From Caldicellulosiruptor diazotrophicus (GTDB lineage Bacteria; Bacillota; Thermoanaerobacteria; Caldicellulosiruptorales; Caldicellulosiruptoraceae), in NCBI RefSeq assembly GCF_017347585.1, contig NZ_AP024480.1:1324001-1388000 (forward strand): 64,000 bases of DNA, read 5' to 3'. The stretch's first letter is position 1. Every line of letters begins with the position of its first letter. A model generated the notes under the pieces. It saw only the letters and a program-made list of their open reading frames with translations, ran no database searches and was not told where the DNA came from. Below are positions 41,623 through 52,825 of this stretch, in pieces. Made by a program: the position numbers and the translations under genes.

Positions 41623-43317
41623 TCAGTCTGTAAATTTGAAACTTTTATTTGCAGATATATCATACCACTTGTTAGCAAACATGGCTAAAAGAAGGTTATC
41701 GTTTTTTTGTAATTGAACTAATTCATTCTTAAAATCCTTAAATTCATCAATTGAGTTCACTTTCAAGTAAAATCCATCTGCTGTTATAATTGGAAGTTCA
41801 CTGTAAATATACTGATCAATATCTACTAAGTCGTTTAATTGGCCTTTTCTAATTTTTGCAACAAGTTTACCAACTATATCAATGACATCAAAACTTTCAG
41901 GGTAAGAATAAGTTTCACCCTCAATAGGAACAGCATCTCCTACTTTAAATGTTTTTTTGTACTTTGGATGTTTTCTAATAAGATCTTCAGACAATGAATA
42001 ATAATATTCATCAAAGCAATGAACTATCATCTCTTTGTCATCTTTTGCAAATTTAGTTGCCTCTTCTTTTAGGTTAGCTAAGCCTGATATGATGCCACCG
42101 CCAGAGACATCATACTCGTCTACTATAACGAACCTACCTGTTGAAGAATTTGCTTTAAATTCATCAAAGCAAATCTTTTCCTTAGTTTTTATAGTCACTT
42201 CTGCAACATCGTTTGTTCGAACCTCAAGAGCATTTTCAACTGTCTCAAGAGTTGTCGCATCTATAACTTTGTCTATAGAAACAATTTCACATTCTGTCTC
42301 TTGTGTAACAAGCTTTAGTTTATATGTTTTATTCTTCACAAGATTTCTTTTTCCAAGCCAAAACAGATTTGCCCTGAACGTATCTGAAACATATAAAGTA
42401 TTATCGTTTTTGTGAACAATAACTTCTCCTCTTTTGTTAAAGAACTCATCTTCAATAGTAATTCCAATAGACATTCCTGCCACTACTTCGTCTTTTTTAT
42501 TATTTTCTGGCCAAAACTCAATTGATTTTACTCTGCTAACCTTTCCTTCTGGCAGGATTTTTATTTCGTCTCCCACTTTTAGCCTTCCAGACTCAAGTCT
42601 GCCAGCAATTATCCTCCTGTGGTCAAATTTATACACATCCTGTATAGGAAATCTTAGAGGTTTGTCTTCCAATTCTTTGTCTTTCTCAAAAAGGTCCAAA
42701 GCCTGAAGTAGAGTCTCACCCTTGTACCATGGCATTTTATCAGACTTTCTTGCTATATTCTCTCCCAAAAAACCTGATACTGGAATGTACTTTTGAGGAT
42801 ATACGTTGAGCTTGCTCAAAAATGTTGAGATTTCGTATTTGATTTCTTTGAACTTTTTTTCTGAAAATTCTATCATGTCCATTTTATTGACTATAACATA
42901 TACCTTTTGGATACCCAAAAGTGATAGAATATATGCATGTCTTTTTGACTGTTCCTGTACACCTTCAGCAGCGTCAATAACAAGAAGTGCTGCCTCTGCA
43001 TTTGCAGCACCTGAAACCATGTTTTTGAGAAATTCCTTGTGCCCCGGAGCATCTATAATTAAATAGTCTCTTTTTGGTGTTGAAAATTTTATCTGAGTGG
43101 TATCAATTGTAATTCCTTGTTTTTGTTCTTCTTCTAATGCATCTAAAAGATAAGCATATTCAAAAGGTCTGCCTTTTTCTTTACTTATTCTTTTTACTCT
43201 TTCTATTGCAGCTTCCGGAACAGATTTGGTATCATAAAGAAGTCTTCCTATGATTGTAGACTTTCCATGGTCAACATGTCCAACCACCACAATCTTGAGT
43301 AATTCTCTTGCAGTCAT
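41623..43317 (-). CDS. cysN: Sulfate adenylyltransferase subunit 1 (CysN GTPase) with C-terminal extension
   Basis: 564 residues. EF-Tu-like GTPase: VGHVDHGKSTIIGRLLYD (P-loop, residues 12-29), DAPGHKEFLKN, NKMD; domains II and III follow to about residue 420, ending FVIVDEYDVSGGG. CysN activates ATP sulfurylase CysD by GTP hydrolysis. The last 145 residues (after about 420) are not found in E. coli CysN (475 aa), show no P-loop and so are not the APS-kinase domain of NodQ. No cysC or cysH in the operon, in line with APS reduction by AprAB. Confidence 0.9.
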   Translation of the reverse strand: MTARELLKIVVVGHVDHGKSTIIGRLLYDTKSVPEAAIERVKRISKEKGRPFEYAYLLDALEEEQKQGITIDTTQIKFSTPKRDYLIIDAPGHKEFLKNMVSGAANAEAALLVIDAAEGVQEQSKRHAYILSLLGIQKVYVIVNKMDMIEFSEKKFKEIKYEISTFLSKLNVYPQKYIPVSGFLGENIARKSDKMPWYKGETLLQALDLFEKDKELEDKPLRFPIQDVYKFDHRRIIAGRLESGRLKVGDEIKILPEGKVSRVKSIEFWPENNKKDEVVAGMSIGITIEDEFFNKRGEVIVHKNDNTLYVSDTFRANLFWLGKRNLVKNKTYKLKLVTQETECEIVSIDKVIDATTLETVENALEVRTNDVAEVTIKTKEKICFDEFKANSSTGRFVIVDEYDVSGGGIISGLANLKEEATKFAKDDKEMIVHCFDEYYYSLSEDLIRKHPKYKKTFKVGDAVPIEGETYSYPESFDVIDIVGKLVAKIRKGQLNDLVDIDQYIYSELPIITADGFYLKVNSIDEFKDFKNELVQLQKNDNLLLAMFANKWYDISANKSFKFTD

Positions 43318-43339: not shown

Positions 43340-44140
43340 TTACATATAACCTTCTTTTCTCAGTTTTTGCATTGCATACGCATCTTCTTGGTCTTGAGCT
43401 CGTCCTGCTCTTTCGTTTACCTTGGTGTTTTTTAGCTCTTCAATTATCTCATCAATTGTTGTTGCATTTGACTCAACAGGGAATGTGCACGGTGCACAAC
43501 CAAGGCTTCTGTATCTTTTTCCATTTTTAGCAAAGTACAGGTCAATAACTGGGATGTTTTCACGTTTGATGTACATCCAAATATCAATTTCTGTCCAGCT
43601 AAGCAAAGGATGAACTCTTACATGGCTTCCTTTAGGAAAATCTGTATTGAACTGATTCCAAAACTCAGGTGGCTGATTTGTATAGTCCCATTCAGAATCC
43701 TCATTTCTAAGACTGAAGAACCTCTCTTTTGACCTTGAACCTTCTTCGTCTCTTCTTATGCCAAGTATCAAAGCTTCAAATTTGTATTTATTAATCACCT
43801 GCTGAAGTGCATCAGTCTTTAGTGCTTTGCAGCAAACAAGTCTTCCCTTCTCAGGCCCCATCCCTTGTTTTATGGCTTCTTCATTTATGTGGACAATTAA
43901 ATCAAGGTTGTATTCCTTTGCTAATTTATCCCTGTACTTTATCATTTCTGGAATTTTATATGTGGTATCTATATGAATCAGGGGAAACGGGCAATGTCCG
44001 AAAAACGCTTTTTTAGCAAGCCACAAAAGCACTGTTGAGTCTTTTCCTATTGACCATAGCATTGCTATCTTGCTAAATTTGCTATAAGCCTCTCTCAAAA
44101 TATATATGCTTTCTGCTTCCAATCTATCTAAGTGATCCAT
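43340..44140 (-). CDS. cysD: Sulfate adenylyltransferase subunit 2 (CysD)
   Basis: 266 residues. PP-loop [20 protein letters not shown] (SxGKDS), [35 protein letters not shown] and [10 protein letters not shown]. It makes adenosine 5'-phosphosulfate from ATP and sulfate with CysN, encoded 22 nt downstream. Sits after aprB in the sulfur operon. Confidence 0.95.
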
Positions 44141-44154
44141 TTTATTCTTCCCTC

Positions 44155-44472
44155 CTAATATGTGGTGTTATCTTTGAGATTCTGTACAATCATTTCTTTT
44201 TCGCCGCTGGGTTTTTCAAAGTACCAGTACATAATCTCATCATTTTCTTTTTCTACATACATAGTTGTTCCATTTCCCCCAATTTCTGCACCTAAAAAAT
44301 ATCTGATTGCAGAAAATTTACACTCTTTTACACACGCAGCACAGCCCCAGCAATCACGCGGGTCTCTGATAAATGCTTTCTTATCTTCATCTATCACAAT
44401 TAAATTGCCTGGACAAATTTCAGCACATTTTCCACATCCAATACATCTTTGTCTATCAATCCTTATGCTCAT
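44155..44472 (-). CDS. aprB: Adenylylsulfate reductase beta subunit-like ferredoxin (AprB)
   Basis: About 105 residues. Two [4Fe-4S] sites: [12 protein letters not shown] and [11 protein letters not shown]; the C-terminal part (residues 60-105) includes [13 protein letters not shown], similar to the AprB tail but shorter than in sulfate-respiring bacteria (about 150 aa). It passes electrons to the AprA FAD. ATG 44472 is favoured; it overlaps the aprA end by 17 nt. Confidence 0.88.
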
Positions 44473-46147
44473 ATACCTCATCCTTTTTTACTAAGCTTCT
44501 AAAGATTATCTTGACTTGGCCATCTTCAAATCGGGAATTCACATACTTCAAAAAGTTCTCATCGTCCTTATAGGGATAATCAACAAATTCTTGGAATGCT
44601 CTCCATCTTGTTTCTTTCCTTGCTTCTAAATGATGTAGCAAAACTTTGCAAACATAAAGCCTGTCAATAAGCTCATAAATTTTCATAAGCTGGTAAGTAT
44701 CTTCGGCTCTTAATCTTTGGGCAAGTGTAAAAAGTTCTTCTATTCTTTCTTTAGCAATTTGTAGCCCTTTTAGATTGTACGCATAACCTGTCGAAATCCC
44801 ACCAGCATAAACATCCATTACTTTTTGCATAGCTTCTTCTAATTCTTCTGTGGTGTACAAAGGAGAAGTATTGGTGAAAAATCTCTGCACCTCATTGAGT
44901 TTTTGTTCTATTGAGGATATATCTAAGGTTTCAAACTCTTTGTCTTTTATATACTTTAGCGCAGAATTTGCAGCTATTTCAGCCTCTGCAAAGCAGCCTG
45001 TTACATACTTGTGAGGACATCCTCCAACAACATCGCCTGCTGCAAATAAGCCTCTCAAGGTTGTTTGTCTTTCTGTATCTACCCAATAACCACTTGCTGA
45101 ATGACCACCAACGATGTATGGTTCTGAGCCTTCAATTTCGACATTCTCAACCGCCGGTCCTCTGCCATTGTTGATCCACTTAAGTGTCTGTGATGGTGCC
45201 ATGTGAAGATATGCTTTTATTAGCCTCTGCTCGTCCTCTTTAGAAATCCCAACTGTTTTTAAATAACACGGACCTCGGCCTGCTTTTATTTCCTCAACTG
45301 TTGAAAATACTCTGTTGTATGTGGTAGGTCTTCCATATCTTTTTTCATAGTACTCACCTTTTGAATTGATAAACTCAGCTTTTACCTCTTGAGCTATTGT
45401 TCCTGTTGGCGCTAAAGTATCCTTGCAGCGAAGAGCTATAAATCTAACTTCATAACTTGTCATTTCGCAACCTGCTCTGATTCCCATTGCATATCCTGAA
45501 CCCACATTAAAAGGCGGATACCACATCTTGTGCCTTGAAAATCCAGGGTTGTTGGGCCTGTAAAGACCTGCAGCACCACCTGTTGCACAAATCACTGCTT
45601 TGGCGATGATAATGTAGAAAACATTGCTATTTATAGAGAATCCATATGCCCCTATTACTTTACTGTCTTTGACGATGTAATCAATGATGTTCACATGATT
45701 TAGCACTTTAACATTTTCTTTACTCTCAACTGCTTTTGCTAAAATTGGTTTTATATTTTCGCCATTTATTTTTATGTTTCTTTTACCTCTTGCTAAGTAT
45801 TTCCCATTTGAATCTTTTAAAATGACAAGACCCATATCTTCAATCTTTTTAGTAACTTCATTTAACCTCAAGGCCATAGTGTATACTAAATCTTCTCTTA
45901 CGATATTTTCATAATCTTCTTTGACATACTGCAAATATGTCTCTGGAGTTTCACCTTCTGTGATATAGGCATTGAGAGCATTGACACCTGCAGCAAGGCA
46001 TCCGCTTCGCTTAATGTTTGCCTTTTCTGCAATTAAAACACTCACGTTTGGCGCTTTTTCAGCAATTGCTATGGCAGCAAAACACCCAGCTGTTCCACCA
46101 CCAATTATGAGTATGTCAGTTTTTAGCATCTTCACTTCAAAGTTCAT
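44456..46147 (-). CDS. aprA: Adenylylsulfate reductase alpha subunit (AprA)
   Basis: 563 residues. FAD-binding DILIIGGGTAGCFAAIAIAE at the N-terminus; AprA-type segments MWYPPFNVGSGYAMG, AGCEMTSYEVRFIALRCKD, GHSASGYWVDTERQTTLRG and GDVVGGCPHKYVTGCFAEAE. It reduces APS to sulfite and AMP. In dissimilatory organisms it works with the Qmo complex; here it lies in a biosynthetic operon with no qmo or dsrAB genes, so an assimilatory role is inferred. Fumarate-reductase-like flavoproteins are related but lack these motifs. Confidence 0.9.
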   Translation of the reverse strand: MNFEVKMLKTDILIIGGGTAGCFAAIAIAEKAPNVSVLIAEKANIKRSGCLAAGVNALNAYITEGETPETYLQYVKEDYENIVREDLVYTMALRLNEVTKKIEDMGLVILKDSNGKYLARGKRNIKINGENIKPILAKAVESKENVKVLNHVNIIDYIVKDSKVIGAYGFSINSNVFYIIIAKAVICATGGAAGLYRPNNPGFSRHKMWYPPFNVGSGYAMGIRAGCEMTSYEVRFIALRCKDTLAPTGTIAQEVKAEFINSKGEYYEKRYGRPTTYNRVFSTVEEIKAGRGPCYLKTVGISKEDEQRLIKAYLHMAPSQTLKWINNGRGPAVENVEIEGSEPYIVGGHSASGYWVDTERQTTLRGLFAAGDVVGGCPHKYVTGCFAEAEIAANSALKYIKDKEFETLDISSIEQKLNEVQRFFTNTSPLYTTEELEEAMQKVMDVYAGGISTGYAYNLKGLQIAKERIEELFTLAQRLRAEDTYQLMKIYELIDRLYVCKVLLHHLEARKETRWRAFQEFVDYPYKDDENFLKYVNSRFEDGQVKIIFRSLVKKDEVYEHKD

Positions 46148-46189: not shown

Positions 46190-47419
46190 TTAAATCTTTT
46201 CAAGTGCCTGGTAAAAATCTTCTATTATGTCTTCTACATCCTCAAGGCCAACACATATTCTTATCATATCTTCATAAACACCCATAGCTTCTTTTTCTTC
46301 AGCGGAAAAACCTACATATATAGTTGACGCGGGATGTACAACAAGTGTCCTTACATCTCCTATATTGGTTGAGTTTATGGCATACCTTAGTGAATTTATC
46401 ACTTTAAATGCATTTTCCTTGGTTCCAACCCGTATTGTTAAAATTGCTCCATATTTGCCTCCAAACTGTTCTGTTGCAAGCTGATAATATATACTTTCCT
46501 CAAGCCCAGGATAATTTACTGAAACTACCTTTTTATTTTCCTTTAAGGCCTTGGCAAGACTAAGAGCATTTTCGCAAATCTTTTGCATACGAACACCAAG
46601 AGTTTCAAGCCCGATTGTATTTAAAAATGCATTAAAAGGCGATATACAGGCACCAAAATCTTTAAGTAAGTTATTTCGAAGTCGTGCAATGTACGCAAAT
46701 TCACCATACTTTTTGTATTCCTTAATAAGCGGATACCTATCATAATCAATTTTCATGTTGCTGCTTGCAACTATAACTCCGCCAATACAGCTGCCGCTTC
46801 CATTTATAAACTTTGATGTTGAATGAACCACTACATCAGCACCAAGTTTTATGGGTTTTACAAGATACGGCGTTGTGACAGTGCTATCAACAACAAGTGC
46901 AATACCATGCTCATGTGCAAGCTCAGCTATTTGCCTGATATTTGGAACATCAAGTTTTGGATTTCCTATCGTTTCTATAAAAATTACTTTAGTTTTATCT
47001 GTTATATACTTTTTAAAGCTTTCAACGCTACTGTCCTCTGCAAATCTTGTTTTGATACCAAAATTCTCAAATGATCTGAACAATGAATATGTGCCACCAA
47101 AAATGCCACTTGCTGAGACAATTTCATCTCCACTTTTTACCAAATTCAATATTGCTAAGGCAATTGCTGCCATGCCAGACGATGTGGCAACAGCAGCAAT
47201 GCCTTCTTCTAAAAATGCTATTCTCCTTTCAAATGCCTCAACTGTAGGATTATTAATCCTTGTATATACAAAACCTGGCTTTTTCCCAGAAAAAACCTCT
47301 TCCAGTTCGTGTGCAGTTTCGTATTGGAAAGAATTACACAGGTATATTGGAATATTTGTTGAACCCCTTTCTTCCTTTGGACCAACATTTCCATGAATCA
47401 AAGAAGTATTAAATCTCAT
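46190..47419 (-). CDS. metY: O-acetylhomoserine sulfhydrylase-like PLP enzyme (MetY)
   Basis: 409 residues, Cys/Met-metabolism PLP family. TSSGMAAIALAILNLVKSGD, YTRINNPTVEAFERRIAFLE, DSTVTTPYLVKPI and the PLP Lys in VVHSTSKFINGSGSCIGG. It replaces the acetyl group of O-acetylhomoserine with sulfur to give homocysteine. Here the likely sulfur donor is the thiocarboxylate of the ThiS-like protein of the same operon. Cystathionine synthase/lyase roles are less likely in this setting. Start ATG overlaps the tusA-like stop by 4 nt. Confidence 0.88.
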   Translation of the reverse strand: MRFNTSLIHGNVGPKEERGSTNIPIYLCNSFQYETAHELEEVFSGKKPGFVYTRINNPTVEAFERRIAFLEEGIAAVATSSGMAAIALAILNLVKSGDEIVSASGIFGGTYSLFRSFENFGIKTRFAEDSSVESFKKYITDKTKVIFIETIGNPKLDVPNIRQIAELAHEHGIALVVDSTVTTPYLVKPIKLGADVVVHSTSKFINGSGSCIGGVIVASSNMKIDYDRYPLIKEYKKYGEFAYIARLRNNLLKDFGACISPFNAFLNTIGLETLGVRMQKICENALSLAKALKENKKVVSVNYPGLEESIYYQLATEQFGGKYGAILTIRVGTKENAFKVINSLRYAINSTNIGDVRTLVVHPASTIYVGFSAEEKEAMGVYEDMIRICVGLEDVEDIIEDFYQALEKI

Positions 47420-47664
47420 TCTTGTCCACCCTTTTTTACAAATACTGTATATGTCCCATCATTGTTATTTATCACTTTTAAAATCTCATGACCTTCTTCT
47501 TTTAAACTTCTCGGGACATTTTGAATAGGCTCACCCTCGTTCATTCTTATCTCTATGATTTGTCCTACCTCCATGTCCTCCATTGTGGCTTTTGCCTTTA
47601 CAAACGTCATTGGACACACAAGATTTGTAATATCCAAAAAAACATCAGCTTTGATGTCACTCAT
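47416..47664 (-). CDS. TusA-like sulfur-carrier protein
   Basis: About 82 residues. Beta-alpha-beta fold of the SirA/TusA/YeeD group: DITNLVCPMTFVKAKATME contains the reactive Cys, but the usual CPxP is CPMT. The central acidic segment reads IEIRMNEGEPIQNVP. It may shuttle sulfur or assist MetY. ATG 47664 has GGAG 8 nt upstream; the longer frame translates that site. Overlaps the sulfite-reductase end by 8 nt. Confidence 0.85.
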   Translation of the reverse strand: MSDIKADVFLDITNLVCPMTFVKAKATMEDMEVGQIIEIRMNEGEPIQNVPRSLKEEGHEILKVINNNDGTYTVFVKKGGQE

Positions 47665-48547
47665 CAAAATCACTCCTTTCATTTTCTATTGCTTTTTCTA
47701 ACTCTTTTTTGAATATATCCCATCCAACTCTCTCTATGGTATTTCTAAACCTCTCGCCTTGTTTGCCATATTTTTTGTAAAATTCAAGTGTAGCTTGAAT
47801 GACCTTGTGAACATCCTCTTTTGAAAATAGGATCGGCAAAATCTGTTTTCCAAGTGCTATATTGTTTCCAAACATACCACCAAAATAGAGAAGATAGCCA
47901 GGCTTGCCTTTCCACGAATTAGTTTGACACGACTTTACACACCTTCCACAATAGGTGCACTTGTCTCTATCTATGGTAATCTCTTTATTTTTCTCATCTA
48001 TTTGTATTGCTTTTGTTGGACATACAGCCTGGCAAAGTCCGCAAAACGTGCAGCTGCTCTTTTCCCACTCAGGTTTTACTGCTCCTTTTATACCTAAATC
48101 ATTTTCTTCAGCTTTAAGGCAATTATTACCACAACCTGTTATTCCGATTTTAAATTTGTGTGGAAGTTCCTGGGCATAATATCTCTTATCACACTCGTTT
48201 GCAAGCTCTGTTGTGTCTATAATTCCGTTTGGGCAAATGCTACTGCCTTGGCAAGCAGTAATTGTCCTTACTCTTGGTCCGCATGCACCAGGCTCAATGC
48301 CCGCTTCTGATAACTCTTTTTTAACTGCCTCTATATCCTCCAGTTTGATAAATGGTATTTCTACTCCCTGTCGTGCAGTCAGGTGTACATATCCTCTACC
48401 ATATTTGTTTGCAACCTCGTATATTTTTTTTAATTGTTCGGCACTTAGTCTTCCGCCAACTACTCTTAGCCTCATAGAAAAATAACCTTTTTGGACCTGT
48501 CGCATAAACCCCCCTTTTTTTAGCTCACTGTAATTTATCTCTTTCAC
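47657..48547 (-). CDS. Small sulfite reductase with embedded 2x[4Fe-4S] ferredoxin domain
   Basis: 296 residues. A single nitrite/sulfite reductase half: VRVVGGRLS-like RLRVVGGRLSAEQL, TARQGVEIPFI, then siroheme-cluster ligands CQGSSIC (Cx5C) and GCGNNC (Cx3C). Between and after these lies a ferredoxin insert with CTFCGLCQAVCP and CTYCGRCVKSC. Similar to AsrC and to one half of Fsr. It should reduce sulfite to sulfide using siroheme. GTG start 9 nt after GGGGG. Needs precorrin-2-derived siroheme from the hem cluster. Confidence 0.88.
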   Translation of the reverse strand: MKEINYSELKKGGFMRQVQKGYFSMRLRVVGGRLSAEQLKKIYEVANKYGRGYVHLTARQGVEIPFIKLEDIEAVKKELSEAGIEPGACGPRVRTITACQGSSICPNGIIDTTELANECDKRYYAQELPHKFKIGITGCGNNCLKAEENDLGIKGAVKPEWEKSSCTFCGLCQAVCPTKAIQIDEKNKEITIDRDKCTYCGRCVKSCQTNSWKGKPGYLLYFGGMFGNNIALGKQILPILFSKEDVHKVIQATLEFYKKYGKQGERFRNTIERVGWDIFKKELEKAIENERSDFDE

Positions 48548-48569: not shown

Positions 48570-48980
48570 TTAAATGATGTGGATTTCTTCCTCTTCCACA
48601 TAACTTTCATATATCCTAAATGATTTTAAAACAGGATTTTTTTCGTCCATGAGTGATAATATGAGATAGCTCAAACTCTTATCGAAAGCAAGTCTTTTGT
48701 CCTCCTCAGACGGTCTTGCGGGTGTGGTTGGATGGCTATGAAAATTGCCAAGTAATACCCAGCCATTTTTTCTCATGTCTTTTACAGCTGCAAACTGCTC
48801 AAGCGGATCCATTGAAAAATGCTCTGGACTTTTGTCTACATTGGTAAGTAAGTAAACTTTCTTGACAATTCTTTTTTCATCCTCAATAACTCCACCCAGA
48901 AGTCCACACGCCTCCATAGGCAAGGAGTTTAAACAATGATTTAACATCTCCTCATATAATGTTTTTGGCAATATTATCAA
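48570..48980 (-). CDS. JAMM/MPN+ metallopeptidase (HcyD/Mec+-like)
   Basis: About 137 residues. JAMM zinc motif: Glu in MEACGLLGG, then HSHPTTPARPSEED (HxHx7Sx2D), all ligands present. In actinobacterial Mec+ this family cuts the CysO-cysteine adduct; in Wolinella HcyD trims the sulfur-carrier precursor. Here it is flanked by the E1-like enzyme and the sulfite reductase, so it should trim the carrier encoded two genes upstream. Start TTG 48980 follows AGGAGGG; the ATG at 49010 would translate that site (NRRD). Confidence 0.9.
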   Translation of the reverse strand: MIILPKTLYEEMLNHCLNSLPMEACGLLGGVIEDEKRIVKKVYLLTNVDKSPEHFSMDPLEQFAAVKDMRKNGWVLLGNFHSHPTTPARPSEEDKRLAFDKSLSYLILSLMDEKNPVLKSFRIYESYVEEEEIHII

Positions 48981-49025
48981 TTCTAATTTATCCCTCCTGT
49001 TTTTTGGCATTCACTTTTGGTACTC

Positions 49026-49844
49026 TTATCCTTGACCTTTTAAATCACACTGAGGCTGTTCATAGTCGATTAATTCTTTTATTGTTGGATTTTTACCACA
49101 TACCTCACAGCTTTCTCTCTTGTTTATCTTTACTTTTCTAAATTCCATCTTCAAAGCGTTGTAAATTAAGATATATCCTGTTAGCAGGTCACCAATTCCA
49201 AGCAAATATTTAATTGCTTCTGTTGCCTGGATTGTGCCAATTATACCACCCATCACACCTAAAACTCCTGCTTGCTTGCAAGTTGGAACTGCATCAGGTG
49301 GTGGTGGGTTTTGAAAGATACATCTAAAGCACGGCCCTTTCTCTGGCACATAAGTCATGGTTTGCCCATCAAATCTTATGATACCTGCATGTGAAAATGG
49401 TTTTTTTAGCATTACACAGGCATCGTTTATCAAAAATTTTGTTGGAAAGTTGTCTGTGCCGTCGATTATAAAATCATAATCTCTATCCTTGATGATATCT
49501 ATTATGTTCTTTGAATTTACCATTTCACGATAAATTACTACTTCCACGTCAGGATTCATTTGGTTTATCTTTTCCTTTGCAGAAAACACCTTTGGCTTGC
49601 CTACATCAGGTGTAAAGTGTATTATTTGTCTTTGAAGATTGGAAAGCTCAACTGCGTCAAAATCAACAAGCCCGATTGTCCCAACACCGGCAGCTGCCAA
49701 AAACATTGCAGCAGGACAGCCAAGTCCCCCAGTCCCAATGATCAAAACCTTAGATTCCAAAAGTTTTTGCTGTCCTTTTGCGCCAACCTCGTTCAGGATG
49801 ATATGTCTTGAGTATCTTTCAAGTTGTGTATCTGTTAACTTCAT
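49026..49844 (-). CDS. ThiF/MoeB/HesA-family E1-like adenylyltransferase (HcyF-like)
   Basis: 272 residues. GTGGLGCPAAMFLAAAGVG (ATP loop), DFDAVELSNLQRQIIH, DGTDNFPTKFLINDAC, Zn-binding CFRC and CEVC pairs, and CKQAGVLGVMGGIIGTIQATE. It adenylates the C-terminal Gly of a ubiquitin-like carrier before thiocarboxylation. ThiF and MoeB are relatives, but no thi or moa genes are adjacent; the ThiS-like gene overlaps its start (ATGA). Confidence 0.9.
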   Translation of the reverse strand: MKLTDTQLERYSRHIILNEVGAKGQQKLLESKVLIIGTGGLGCPAAMFLAAAGVGTIGLVDFDAVELSNLQRQIIHFTPDVGKPKVFSAKEKINQMNPDVEVVIYREMVNSKNIIDIIKDRDYDFIIDGTDNFPTKFLINDACVMLKKPFSHAGIIRFDGQTMTYVPEKGPCFRCIFQNPPPPDAVPTCKQAGVLGVMGGIIGTIQATEAIKYLLGIGDLLTGYILIYNALKMEFRKVKINKRESCEVCGKNPTIKELIDYEQPQCDLKGQG

Positions 49845-50050
49845 AATTGTCCCCCTCCCATGAAATATAAAAACTCAACCTCATCGCCATCTTTTACTGT
49901 AACCTTATCATACTCACTTCTGGGGATAATTTGACCGTTCAGCTGCACTGTTACGTATTCTTTCATTGAGACATTTAAAGCATCTAACATCTCAAAGATT
50001 GTCATCTCTCTTTCAATTTGTACTTCATTACCATTTGCCTTAATTTTCAT
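49841..50050 (-). CDS. ThiS/MoaD-like sulfur-carrier protein with C-terminal GGGQL (HcyS-like)
   Basis: 69 residues, beta-grasp: MKIKANGNEVQIE, TIFEMLDALNVSMKEYVTVQ, LNGQIIPRSEYDKVTV and GDEVEFLYFMGGGQL. ThiS and MoaD end exactly in Gly-Gly; this one carries Gln-Leu beyond, so it should be a precursor needing cleavage. The codons for the Gly run double as the ribosome-binding site of the E1-like gene, whose ATG overlaps the TGA. Probable sulfur donor for MetY. Confidence 0.92.
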   Translation of the reverse strand: MKIKANGNEVQIEREMTIFEMLDALNVSMKEYVTVQLNGQIIPRSEYDKVTVKDGDEVEFLYFMGGGQL

Positions 50051-50076: not shown

Positions 50077-50871
50077 TCATGTATTTTTAAGGCCCCATCT
50101 AAGTCTTATCTGATTTTCTAAAGGGCCAAATATTGCCTTTTCTACAACAAGTCCGAAAATAATTGTTACTATCATCACGCTAATGACTTGGCTCATATCT
50201 GCAAGGTCTCTCCCAACCATGAGTACTTGCCCTAAACCTTTTGTAGCAAAGAGCATCTCACCTGCCATCAATGCTCTAAATGCAAACGACCAACCTTGTT
50301 TCATGCCTGAAATAATATACGGAAGGCTTGCGGGGATTATTACATTTAAGTAAAGTGTTATACCTTTTGCACCCATCGTTTTTGCTGCTTTTATATAAAG
50401 TGGATTTACATTTTTAATACCTGACTCAACTGCAAGTGTTATAGAAAATAGAGAACCAATTGCAGTTACAAATATAATAGCTTTTTCTGAAAGACCATAC
50501 CATAATATGGCAAATGGTAGCCAGCAGACGCTTGGCAATGTTTGAAAACCAAGAATAAGTGGTCTTAAATTTCTATCTAAAAATCCGAACTTTACTATTG
50601 AAAGTCCAAGAATAATTCCCGCAATAAGAGAAATCAAATAACCTATAACCATTCTTTTAGTTGTTGCCCAGATTGCTATGAACAAAACATTGTTATCCAG
50701 AAGTCTTATAAAAGTTTCTGCTACTGATACAGGAGATGGAAACACATAAGGTTTCCATATCTTAAAAAGCTCAACAAAAATTCTATAGACCAATTCCCAA
50801 GCTGCTATCAGAGCTATATAAAACAGTGTCCTTTTCAAAACTCCAATCGCTATCGTATTCTGCTTTTGCAA
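50077..50871 (-). CDS. ABC transporter permease, SsuC/TauC-like
   Basis: About 264 residues, six spans, with the ABC-interaction loop AAKTMGAKGITLYLNVIIPASLP and the usual end GLVVEKAIFGPLENQIRLRWG. Forms the channel for the SsuABC-like importer; substrates of this group are sulfonates, nitrate or similar oxyanions. Start TTG 50871 with GAGGTGG 6 nt upstream is favoured over ATG 50886. Either way the gene overlaps the ATPase 3' end by about 90-100 nt in another frame. Confidence 0.85.
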   Translation of the reverse strand: MQKQNTIAIGVLKRTLFYIALIAAWELVYRIFVELFKIWKPYVFPSPVSVAETFIRLLDNNVLFIAIWATTKRMVIGYLISLIAGIILGLSIVKFGFLDRNLRPLILGFQTLPSVCWLPFAILWYGLSEKAIIFVTAIGSLFSITLAVESGIKNVNPLYIKAAKTMGAKGITLYLNVIIPASLPYIISGMKQGWSFAFRALMAGEMLFATKGLGQVLMVGRDLADMSQVISVMIVTIIFGLVVEKAIFGPLENQIRLRWGLKNT

Positions 50872-51622
50872 TCTTTTCCACCTCATCTTTTAATTCTTTC
50901 ATAATAGCAGATATCATATAGACTATGTCAGGATTATCAAGAAGTCGCGGCCTTGCAAGTCTTATTTCAAAAACCTTTTTGATTTTTCCCGGGTTTGAAG
51001 ACATAACCACAACCTTGTCTGCTAAAAGAACCGCTTCTTCTATATTGTGTGTCACAAACATAATTGTCTTTTTAGTCTCCCACCAGATTCGCTGAAGTTC
51101 AAGCAGTAAGATATTTTTTGTCTGGCTGTCAAGTGCTGCAAAAGGCTCATCCATCAGCAATACTTCAGAATCAAGCGTCAACGCCCTTGCTAAGGCAACC
51201 CTCTGTTTCATTCCGCCTGATAATTGGTGAACATAAGCGTCTTTAAACTTTGTTAAGTGAACCATCTTTAGGTATTTTAGTGCTTTTTCATATCTTTCTT
51301 TTTTGGGGACACCGCGTAATTTCATACCAAATTCAACATTGTCAATAACTTTTAGCCATGGAAATAAAGCAGACTCTTGGAACATTACAATCCTATCTGG
51401 TCCGGGTGACAAGACTTCTCTGCCGTTTAAAAAAACCTTTCCCTCAGAGGGTTTTTCAAGCCCAGCTATTATATTCAAAAGTGTAGATTTGCCACAGCCA
51501 GATGGACCGAGAATGCATATAAACTCTCCATTTTGTACTTCTAAATTTATTTTTTCTAACACATTTATTTCTTTGTTTTTTGATTGAAATCTCTTGCTTA
51601 CATTTTCAATTACCAGTGCCAA
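50783..51622 (-). CDS. ABC transporter ATPase, SsuB/TauB-like
   Basis: 279 residues. Walker A GPSGCGKSTLLNIIAG, Q-loop MFQESALFPW, signature LSGGMKQRVALARAL, Walker B EVLLMDEPFAALD, H-loop VTHNIEEAV. The last 35 residues (KDTVLYSSDSSLGIGL) are beyond the usual family end and are read from DNA shared with the permease. Four nucleotides from the binding-protein gene. Confidence 0.92.
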   Translation of the reverse strand: MALVIENVSKRFQSKNKEINVLEKINLEVQNGEFICILGPSGCGKSTLLNIIAGLEKPSEGKVFLNGREVLSPGPDRIVMFQESALFPWLKVIDNVEFGMKLRGVPKKERYEKALKYLKMVHLTKFKDAYVHQLSGGMKQRVALARALTLDSEVLLMDEPFAALDSQTKNILLLELQRIWWETKKTIMFVTHNIEEAVLLADKVVVMSSNPGKIKKVFEIRLARPRLLDNPDIVYMISAIMKELKDEVEKIAKAEYDSDWSFEKDTVLYSSDSSLGIGL

Positions 51623-51625
51623 TTT

Positions 51626-52654
51626 TTAGTACACCTCTTTGTTTTTGATTCTATCTAAAATTTCTGCGTTTACTAATTCTTTAATATTTGGCTTTTCTCT
51701 TAAGTATCCCAACTCAAAATATGACTCAATGGCTTTTTCTAAGGATTCTCTTTGTATTTCGCTTGAAAGTTTGATATTTTTGAAGGAGTCTTTTAGGATG
51801 TCTGCCGGCAGCGGCTTAGAAGTTATCTCAGAAATTTGGTTATTTATTATTTCATATGATTTTTCAGGATTTTTTTCAATAAAGTCTGTTACCTCAAGAT
51901 GCGCTATGAGAAATTTTTCTACAATATCAGAATGCTCTTTTAAAAACTTTGTGGTAGTAATAATTACTGTTGTAGGAATATCTATGTATTGTCTTATTTG
52001 GCTACTGTCAAGCACAACATTGGCATTTACTTCTTTTTTTAACCTTGTCCCCCAAGGTTCAGGAACCAACGCAGCATCTATCTGGTTTCTATCAAGCAAA
52101 GTTTTAATGTCTGGATTTTCAGCTTGAATAATCTCAACATCTCCACCTTTGGTAGTATCTTTTAGCCCAGCTTTGTTTAATAAAAACCTTAATACAATAT
52201 CCTGGGTATTCCCAAATTGAGGAACCGCAATTTTCTTACCTTTTAGGTCACCTAAATTTTTTATATCCAAGCCCTGCCTTGAGACCAGCATCATTCCTCC
52301 ATTTGCAGCACCTGCGATAATCTTTATTTCCCCGTTTGTCTTTTCAAAGCCGTTTATCGCAGGAATTGGCCCAATATAACCTATGTCAACCTCATCAGGT
52401 AAAAACGCTTCTATCTCAGCCGGACCTGCATTGAAGACCTTATATTCAACTTTTACATCCTTGCCTATTCTCTTTTGGAAGGTACCAAGTTCTTTCCCTA
52501 CCAACGCTTGGGCATGAGTTATATTCGGGAAAAATGCAATTCTTACCTTTAGATTTTTGTCTTCTTTTCTTGCATAGCATCCTGAAAGGAGAAATGACAA
52601 AGTAATTGGTAGTATGATTAAGGCAGCCACTTTATAATATCTTTTTATTGCCAT
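51626..52654 (-). CDS. ABC transporter solute-binding lipoprotein, SsuA-like
   Basis: 342 residues. Signal with lipobox LLSGC (Cys at about 26), then the NMT1/SsuA-like fold: VRIAFFPNITHAQALVGKE, DIGYIGPIPAINGFEK, KIAVPQFGNTQDIVLRFLL, ALVPEPWGTRL. The operon encodes sulfate activation but no other sulfate permease, so sulfate is a candidate ligand besides sulfonates; no SsuD-type monooxygenase is present. First gene of the sulfur operon, with a consensus promoter upstream. Confidence 0.88.
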   Translation of the reverse strand: MAIKRYYKVAALIILPITLSFLLSGCYARKEDKNLKVRIAFFPNITHAQALVGKELGTFQKRIGKDVKVEYKVFNAGPAEIEAFLPDEVDIGYIGPIPAINGFEKTNGEIKIIAGAANGGMMLVSRQGLDIKNLGDLKGKKIAVPQFGNTQDIVLRFLLNKAGLKDTTKGGDVEIIQAENPDIKTLLDRNQIDAALVPEPWGTRLKKEVNANVVLDSSQIRQYIDIPTTVIITTTKFLKEHSDIVEKFLIAHLEVTDFIEKNPEKSYEIINNQISEITSKPLPADILKDSFKNIKLSSEIQRESLEKAIESYFELGYLREKPNIKELVNAEILDRIKNKEVY

Positions 52655-52716: not shown

Positions 52717-52744
52717 TCTCTGCTCAAAAAACAATGAGCAGAGA
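52717..52744. repeat. Perfect 10-bp hairpin in the sulfur-operon leader
   Basis: TCTCTGCTCA (52717-52726) and its complement (52735-52744) with an 8-nt loop, within the 136-nt leader before ssuA. No U run follows on the minus strand, so it is not an obvious terminator. It does not match the S-box or T-box consensus that I know. Confidence 0.6.
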
Positions 52745-52796: not shown

Positions 52797-52825
52797 ATTA
52801 TAATACATGGTAATTTTTATGTCAA
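52797..52825 (-). promoter_or_regulatory. Consensus sigma-A promoter of the sulfur operon
   Basis: Minus strand TTGACA (52825-52820), 17 nt, TATAAT (52802-52797): both hexamers exact. Transcription should start near 52790, giving a 136-nt leader. Confidence 0.88.

What the first reader, a model, noticed from the sequence alone, without database searches (positions are those of the whole stretch)
49841..50050. Sulfur-carrier protein made as a precursor (ends GGGQL) in a methionine-type sulfur operon
The ThiS-like protein ends Gly-Gly-Gly-Gln-Leu, whereas activated carriers need a free Gly-Gly end. A JAMM peptidase, an E1-like enzyme and MetY are encoded in the same operon. This is the layout of protein-thiocarboxylate-dependent homocysteine synthesis (HcyS, HcyD, HcyF, MetY) described in Wolinella, here in a probable thermophilic Firmicute. 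Two terminal residues would be removed.
Basis: partly seen in the sequence, partly recalled or inferred. Interest (0 to 1): 0.8.

Follow-up and report, generated by a model that had tools for sequence, protein, structure and literature searches.

The report
Capped sulfur carrier for homocysteine synthesis
A Caldicellulosiruptor bacterium encodes a small sulfur-carrying protein with two extra end residues that a neighbouring peptidase is predicted to cut off before the protein would hand over sulfur for methionine synthesis, a pathway already known elsewhere; across relatives the extra tail varies freely, and in a few it is replaced by the enzyme that likely uses the sulfur.

Summary
The 69-aa ThiS-type carrier at 49841-50050(-) ends GGG-Gln-Leu, in an operon with E1, JAMM, sulfite reductase, TusA-like, MetY, AprAB and CysDN genes. 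The two other ThiS-family matches in the genome end at free GG. In 13 genomes of the same family, the 9 with a capped carrier are exactly the 9 with JAMM over cut-off; 21 of 21 other carriers are uncapped. In 80 named loci, 77 carriers are capped and JAMM is nearby in 57 of 57 loci with at least 4 kb held on each side (E1 50, MetY 41). The operon type was listed for C. saccharolyticus and Wolinella in 2006 and its chemistry shown in Wolinella in 2011 (recalled): a new member of a known kind. Added here: the tail is free in sequence and length (1-18 residues) and usually holds the overlap with the next gene; eight related proteins are carrier-MetY fusions joined right after GGG, with JAMM and E1 downstream in the 3 loci read; cluster MetYs lack a loop of ordinary MetYs, as does PDB 3ri6 (Wolinella, recalled). 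All catalysis is inferred.

The parts
49841..50050 (-). Capped ThiS/HcyS-type sulfur carrier, 69 aa, ends FLYFM-GGG-QL
   Evidence: beta-grasp model, mean pLDDT 90.6, residues 67-69 under 50
49844..49849 (-). Codons of the Gln-Leu cap; stop TGA 49841-49843 overlaps the E1 start ATG 49842-49844
49850..49858 (-). GGA GGG GGA codons of the Gly-Gly-Gly end; also a Shine-Dalgarno-like stretch for the E1 start (function inferred)
   Evidence: sequence
49026..49844 (-). E1-like (HcyF/MoeB-type) enzyme, 272 aa, GTGGLG, two CxxC, Cys189; no rhodanese domain
48570..49010 (-). JAMM metallopeptidase (HcyD-type), 146 aa, HSHPTTPARPSEED and upstream Glu
   Evidence: the only Prok-JAB match found in the genome
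47657..48547 (-). Sulfite reductase of the siroheme/4Fe-4S type with added Fer4 sites, AsrC-like
47416..47682 (-). TusA/SirA-like sulfur relay protein, Cys23-Pro
46190..47419 (-). MetY (O-acetylhomoserine sulfhydrylase family), 409 aa, lacking the PDPSYHG loop; 452.3 bits to TIGR01326, under its cut-off of 495.1
44456..46147 (-). APS reductase alpha (AprA type)
   Evidence: 987 bits, cut-off 557
44155..44481 (-). APS reductase beta-like ferredoxin
43340..44140 (-). CysD, sulfate adenylyltransferase small subunit
41623..43317 (-). CysN, sulfate adenylyltransferase large subunit
50077..50886 (-). ABC permease (SsuC/SaoP-like)
50783..51622 (-). ABC ATPase (SsuB/SaoA-like)
51626..52654 (-). SsuA-family substrate-binding protein (substrate not known)
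   Evidence: 238 bits, cut-off 163.5
52797..52825 (-). Promoter-like TTGACA-17-TATAAT upstream of ssuA (12 of 12; consensus match only)
   Evidence: 47 promoter-like sites in the region against 42.1 in shuffles, so only the exactness of this one stands out

Best explanation
This operon encodes a sulfur carrier that ends GGG-Gln-Leu together with a JAMM peptidase, an E1-like enzyme and MetY, and it likely makes homocysteine from sulfate by the Wolinella-type route: JAMM would first clip Gln-Leu, E1 would adenylate the freed glycine, sulfide would turn it into a thiocarboxylate, and MetY would move that sulfur onto O-acetylhomoserine. Shown here by sequence: the cap, the operon with a predicted sulfate-to-sulfide path (CysDN, AprAB, sulfite reductase), intact JAMM and E1 motifs, the tight partnership of capped carriers with JAMM, and a MetY without the loop of ordinary MetYs. 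Inferred: every catalytic step, including a second JAMM step that would release homocysteine from a carrier-homocysteine amide as recalled for Wolinella HcyD, and sulfur delivery by free sulfide or by the TusA-like protein. The cap probably keeps the carrier inactive until JAMM acts and, in most of the loci surveyed, also holds the overlap with the next gene's start codon.
For: Cap beyond the family end. Same-genome controls uncapped. Family survey: 9 capped carriers in the same 9 of 13 genomes that have JAMM over cut-off; 21 of 21 other carriers uncapped (Fisher p = 0.0014, genomes not independent). 80 loci: 77 capped (2 of them by fusion), JAMM in 75 of 80 and in 57 of 57 with at least 4 kb held on each side; E1 50, TusA 49, SiR 44, MetY 41 of 57. 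JAMM HxHx7SxxD motif in 75 of 75. Six Selenomonas loci hold a free-GGG ThiS about 3 kb from a capped carrier; in the one whose ORFs I read, a ThiG-like ORF follows the free one. HcyS-MetY fusions in 8 proteins, with JAMM and E1 downstream in the 3 fusion loci read. Cluster MetYs, fusion MetYs and PDB 3ri6 (Wolinella, recalled) lack the loop of ordinary MetYs, which form a separate clade (100/100).
Against: Two FLYFMGGG carriers are uncapped (L044, which has an intact JAMM in its cluster, and L078). MetY was not found near the carrier in 16 of 57 well-covered loci, so another acceptor may exist there. Window MetY is closer to ordinary MetYs (41-48%) than to 3ri6 (37%). The genome has an ordinary MetX-MetY pair and CysK. 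Of 8 genomes examined whose carrier-JAMM locus has no E1 nearby, two show no close E1 in the held assembly. Nothing was assayed.
Confidence: 0.85

Rival explanations
1. The tail is only a by-product of translational coupling: the GGG codons serve as the ribosome-binding site of the next gene and the tail codons are the spacer and the overlapping start/stop; JAMM is needed merely to undo this.
For: By a start-codon rule, 64 of 64 carriers whose stop overlaps the next cluster gene are capped (of 77 examined); both uncapped carriers lie among the 6 whose next cluster gene does not overlap. In the window the stop overlaps the E1 ATG by 4 bp and GGAGGGGGA precedes it.
Against: Of 8 carriers without such an overlap (6 apart, 2 with no cluster gene downstream on that strand), 6 are capped; the four that are clearly apart (L012 39 bp, L059 64 bp, L027 and L061 none) are all capped. 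Tails reach 18 residues or a whole MetY. Starts were assigned by rule and long overlaps are unsure; 5 further loci had no start found.
Confidence: 0.3
2. JAMM acts only on the product, freeing homocysteine from the carrier, as Mec+ does for CysO-cysteine (recalled), and the Gln-Leu tail is removed by another protease or stays on.
For: Recalled precedent only: Mec+ is a JAMM protein acting on a carrier-amino-acid amide.
Against: In 13 related genomes JAMM over cut-off is present exactly where a capped carrier is, while uncapped carriers occur without it; a tail cannot stay on a carrier that must be adenylated at its terminal Gly (established for ThiS/MoaD).
Confidence: 0.08
3. The carrier is a ubiquitin-like modifier, with JAMM as its deconjugase, rather than a sulfur donor.
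For: The JAMM protein weakly matches the haloarchaeal desampylase model (71 bits, cut-off 130) and P. furiosus JAMM1 (36-37 bits).
Against: The neighbourhood is sulfur assimilation; MetY is the fusion partner in relatives; the nearest JAMM structure by sequence is the uncharacterised 2kks (181.8 bits), far above the other types.
Confidence: 0.04

Closest known systems
[quoted passage not shown] title seen in reference lists, content recalled)
   Same: Capped ThiS-like carrier, JAMM, E1-like, MetY, sulfite reductase and sulfate activation genes in one cluster (Wolinella side recalled); loop-less MetY
   Different: Wolinella carrier has a one-residue Ala cap (recalled), here Gln-Leu; window MetY only 37% identical to 3ri6
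Gene-neighbourhood type 4e of Iyer, Burroughs and Aravind 2006 (PMC1779556, passages read)
   Same: Same gene set including SirA/TusA; C. saccharolyticus and W. succinogenes are listed
   Different: The passages shown do not mention the capped end or a carrier-MetY fusion; they note a ThiS-like domain fused to sulfite reductase
QbsE/QbsD and PtmS2/PtmS1 (PMC6006322, passage read)
   Same: Capped carrier whose end is exposed by a protease of this kind
   Different: Secondary metabolism; caps named there are MV or C
CysO/Mec+/CysM of Mycobacterium tuberculosis (recalled)
   Same: Thiocarboxylate carrier plus JAMM in an amino-acid pathway
   Different: Makes cysteine; no CysK/CysM-type synthase in this operon
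ThiS of thiamine synthesis
   Same: Fold and family (3cwi/2k5p, 1zud, 1tyg)
   Different: Free GG end; a separate gene elsewhere in this genome
Ubiquitin-ribosomal protein fusions (recalled)
   Same: Ubiquitin-like domain made in front of a functional partner and cut after its glycines
   Different: Analogy only, for the HcyS-MetY fusions of relatives; cutting not shown

Membership tests
HcyS/HcyD/HcyF/MetY pathway | ThiS-like carrier with residues after its terminal GG | tested here: met
   GGG-QL
HcyS/HcyD/HcyF/MetY pathway | JAMM peptidase with full metal motif in the operon | tested here: met
   HSHPTTPARPSEED plus Glu
HcyS/HcyD/HcyF/MetY pathway | E1-like enzyme without rhodanese domain | tested here: met
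   272 aa, ThiF domain, no rhodanese match
HcyS/HcyD/HcyF/MetY pathway | MetY encoded in the same operon | tested here: met
   46190-47419, 4 bp overlap with the TusA gene
HcyS/HcyD/HcyF/MetY pathway | MetY belongs with the Wolinella enzyme rather than with ordinary MetYs | tested here: inconclusive
   Shares loop absence and lies outside the ordinary clade, but identity to 3ri6 is 37% against 41-48% to ordinary MetYs, 3ri6 is a long branch, and the Wolinella origin of 3ri6 is recalled
HcyS/HcyD/HcyF/MetY pathway | Sulfate-to-sulfide genes in the cluster | tested here: met
   CysDN, AprAB, sulfite reductase
HcyS/HcyD/HcyF/MetY pathway | Cap removal, thiocarboxylate formation and homocysteine release | not testable with these tools
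   needs enzymology
ThiS of thiamine synthesis | Free GG end and thiamine neighbourhood | tested here: not met
   Capped, in a sulfur operon, although over the TIGR01683 cut-off; the free-GGG ThiS is elsewhere beside a ThiG-like ORF recognised by eye
CysO/Mec+ cysteine pathway | CysK/CysM-type cysteine synthase in the cluster | tested here: not met
   None among the 13 operon products scanned; the genome's CysK lies at C1:963247. A cysteine synthase side activity of MetY is not excluded
Haloarchaeal desampylase | Score over the curated cut-off | tested here: not met
   71 bits, cut-off 130

The most novel reading that the evidence does not exclude
The cap of methionine-type sulfur carriers is a free slot, conserved only in being there: 1-18 arbitrary residues, usually the coupling overlap with the next gene, or the acceptor enzyme itself. 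In Goldbacteria-like lineages the carrier is made as a carrier-MetY polyprotein that JAMM cuts after GGG, releasing carrier and acceptor one to one, a bacterial counterpart of ubiquitin fusion genes.
Probability: 0.6. Interest if true: 0.65.

Novelty: new member of a known kind. Interest (0 to 1): 0.42.

Why it matters
It places a second, protein-bound route to homocysteine in a genus of thermophilic plant-biomass degraders (genus traits recalled) that also has the genes of the free-sulfide route, so the two could be compared in one organism. The survey turns a pathway shown in one species into a testable rule (a capped carrier comes with a JAMM gene), and the carrier-MetY fusions point to MetY as the acceptor by an independent line. 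The NCBIfam model and public names call these carriers thiamine ThiS, which is misleading.

Tried and rejected
Rejected: that the carrier is the thiamine ThiS (a separate free-GGG ThiS exists); that the tail is a frame or start artefact (120 of 120 listed homologues have one). Led nowhere: viral contigs gave no relative; no Rfam family over its gathering score in 33000-56000; the papers search for HcyS hit the abbreviation for homocysteine; PMC9506716 mentions thiocarboxylate only in its references; 3ri6 was not among the 50 rows of the structural second look, so its title was not confirmed.

Searches for a printed carrier-MetY fusion or a survey of caps: searches listed nothing that I could recognise as such, from titles, abstract starts and the passages read. 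The term ThiS also matches the word 'this', and most subscription journals, including the two Wolinella papers, are not held, so this is no proof of absence.

Rows dropped: six of 66 MetY rows before the tree (two partial, one odd short hit, two near copies, one duplicate). The two fusions and the broken L087 carrier were left out of the tail-length and overlap counts.

Full report
What is there. The ORF 49841-50050(-) encodes a 69-residue ThiS-family protein ending FLYFMGGGQL. The ThiS profile ends at residue 67, and alignment with the genome's own second ThiS, which stops at SFVGGG beside a ThiG-like ORF (recognised by eye), puts Gln68-Leu69 beyond the canonical end. A third, MoaD-like match, under the ThiS cut-off, also ends at GG. 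The genome has one Prok-JAB match, in this operon. The predicted model is a beta-grasp fold in which only residues 67-69 fall under pLDDT 50. The nearest structure is 3cwi/2k5p, a Geobacter metallireducens protein filed as ThiS, in which GGG is followed by Lys70 and eight more residues that are probably a purification tag (tag inferred).

The operon. Thirteen co-directional genes run from SsuA-type uptake through carrier, E1, JAMM, sulfite reductase, TusA-like, MetY, AprA, AprB and CysD to CysN, with gaps of -104 to +42 bp on mechanical ORF starts, some of which may be too far upstream. A 12-of-12 promoter match lies upstream, though promoter-like sites as a whole are no more frequent than in shuffles. 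Tetrapyrrole and siroheme genes follow after 196 bp, which fits a siroheme sulfite reductase. So a predicted path from sulfate to sulfide and on to homocysteine is encoded together; the MetX match is elsewhere, next to a second MetY (the MetX score, 487 bits, is just under its cut-off of 500).

The cap and JAMM go together. In 13 genomes of the window's family, 9 carriers are capped (QL, LL or SL) and they lie in exactly the 9 genomes with JAMM over the cut-off; 13 thiamine-type and 8 MoaD-like carriers are all uncapped. One of the other four genomes has a JAMM match below cut-off (21.5 bits). In 80 named loci (the best 80 of at least 576, found by conserved peptides that do not include the tail), 77 carriers are capped, 2 of these by fusion, 2 are uncapped and 1 is broken. 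Cap lengths of the 75 short ones: two residues in 34, three in 14, one in 8, up to 18. JAMM is found in 75 of 80 loci and in 57 of 57 with at least 4 kb held on each side, ahead of E1 (50), TusA (49), sulfite reductase (44) and MetY (41). Of the five loci without JAMM, all cut short on one side, two have a strong JAMM elsewhere in the genome, two only weak or partial matches (about 25 and 22 bits), and the fifth (L078, itself uncapped) a 45.6-bit match elsewhere. Of eight genomes examined (of ten loci without E1 nearby), six have a 71-78% identical E1 elsewhere and two do not in the held assembly.

Why a cap. In the window the carrier's stop overlaps the E1 start (ATGA), and its glycine codons GGAGGGGGA form a Shine-Dalgarno-like stretch, so the Gln-Leu codons are also the spacer. 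By a start-codon rule over 77 carriers, 64 of 64 overlapping ones are capped; of 8 without overlap 6 are capped and 2 are not (the two uncapped have gaps of 2 and 3 bp; the four clearly apart are capped); 5 more had no start found. Coupling may thus explain how caps arise and their usual length of two, but not caps kept without overlap.

Carrier-MetY fusions. A search restricted to long proteins found 8 proteins of 478-486 aa in which the carrier runs straight from FLYFMGGG into MetY. In 45 genomes of the phylum of L068, 26 had some match to its carrier domain; of the five best-scoring (59.9 bits and over) three are fused and two are short carriers; the weaker matches, one of them in a 328-residue frame, were not examined. 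In the three fusion loci E1, TusA and a JAMM with intact motif lie downstream. Pfam gives ThiS 8-68 and Cys_Met_Meta_PP 74-479, and the model's only stretch of three or more residues under pLDDT 50 is the junction, 65-71. Since a carrier of this kind needs a free C-terminal glycine to be activated (established for ThiS/MoaD), JAMM cutting after GGG is the simplest reading; it is untested. A carrier-E1 fusion (L067) is a single metagenome case and may be a lost stop codon.

MetY. The window MetY, the cluster MetYs and the fusion MetYs lack the PDPSYHG loop that ordinary MetYs carry, and so does 3ri6, which I recall to be the Wolinella enzyme. In a 60-row tree the seven loop-bearing MetYs form one clade (100/100) and 3ri6 falls with fusion protein P0128 (100/98; both long branches) inside a set of 12 rows that holds all eight fusion rows (99/94). 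Against a simple story, the window MetY is 37% identical to 3ri6 and 41-48% to the four ordinary MetYs compared, it sits in another part of the tree (a set of 24 rows, 100/97, nearly all Bacillota), and other family members of about 398 aa may lack the loop too (not tested).

Known and new. Type 4e of Iyer et al. 2006 lists this gene set for C. saccharolyticus and W. succinogenes and notes that a SirA protein always accompanies it (PMC1779556, passages). Later papers cite the Wolinella work for protein-thiocarboxylate methionine synthesis (passages: PMC6225789, PMC5764234, PMC6271081); the work itself is not held and its details (Ala cap, dual role of HcyD, bisulfide from Sir) are recalled. 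Capped carriers opened by a protease are described with QbsD as the example (PMC6006322, passage). The window is therefore a new member of a known kind. The free-slot character of the cap, its link to gene overlap and the carrier-MetY fusions were not found in print.

Noticed in passing
L068:8001-9446, L180 and L181 (G060, G063), proteins P0121-P0128: In-frame HcyS-MetY fusions, 478-486 aa in the proteins found, with 3-7 residues between GGG and the first MetY motif in seven and about 9 (by eye) in P0125; E1, TusA and JAMM follow in the three loci read.
   Followed up: yes
window 52717-52744: Perfect 10-bp inverted repeat (TCTCTGCTCA-N8-TGAGCAGAGA) between the promoter match and ssuA; near-copies (1 and 3 mismatches) lie about 2.7 kb from the carrier in two sister genomes (G005, G004). 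Possible operator or leader hairpin; no Rfam match.
   Followed up: partly
G000:C1:1433113-1434354 (L185): Second, ordinary MetY beside a MetX match, 99% identical (412 of 417) to 8sf5, titled promiscuous amino acid gamma synthase from Caldicellulosiruptor hydrothermalis.
   Followed up: partly
L063, L066, L069, L070, L072, L074 (Selenomonas): Uncapped ThiS (FMGGG end) and capped carrier within about 3 kb, a natural paired control; the ThiG-like neighbour was read in L066 only.
   Followed up: partly
L033, L041, L050, L051, L053, L062 (Treponema) and L014: Capped carrier plus JAMM without E1 or MetY found nearby; in L051 a siroheme-synthase-like ORF (PF13241; name by eye) follows. Acceptor unknown.
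   Followed up: partly
L044 and L078: The only two uncapped FLYFMGGG carriers of the 80 loci, both directly upstream of metY, the position where other lineages have the fusion.
   Followed up: partly
window 44155-46147: AprAB-type APS reductase, usually dissimilatory (recalled), in what reads as an assimilatory operon.
   Followed up: no
L068:10265-10750: DsrE/DsrF-like protein (PF13686) between E1 and TusA in the fusion locus, a further possible sulfur relay.
   Followed up: no
window 41623-43317: CysN carries about 150 C-terminal residues beyond the matched family region.
   Followed up: no
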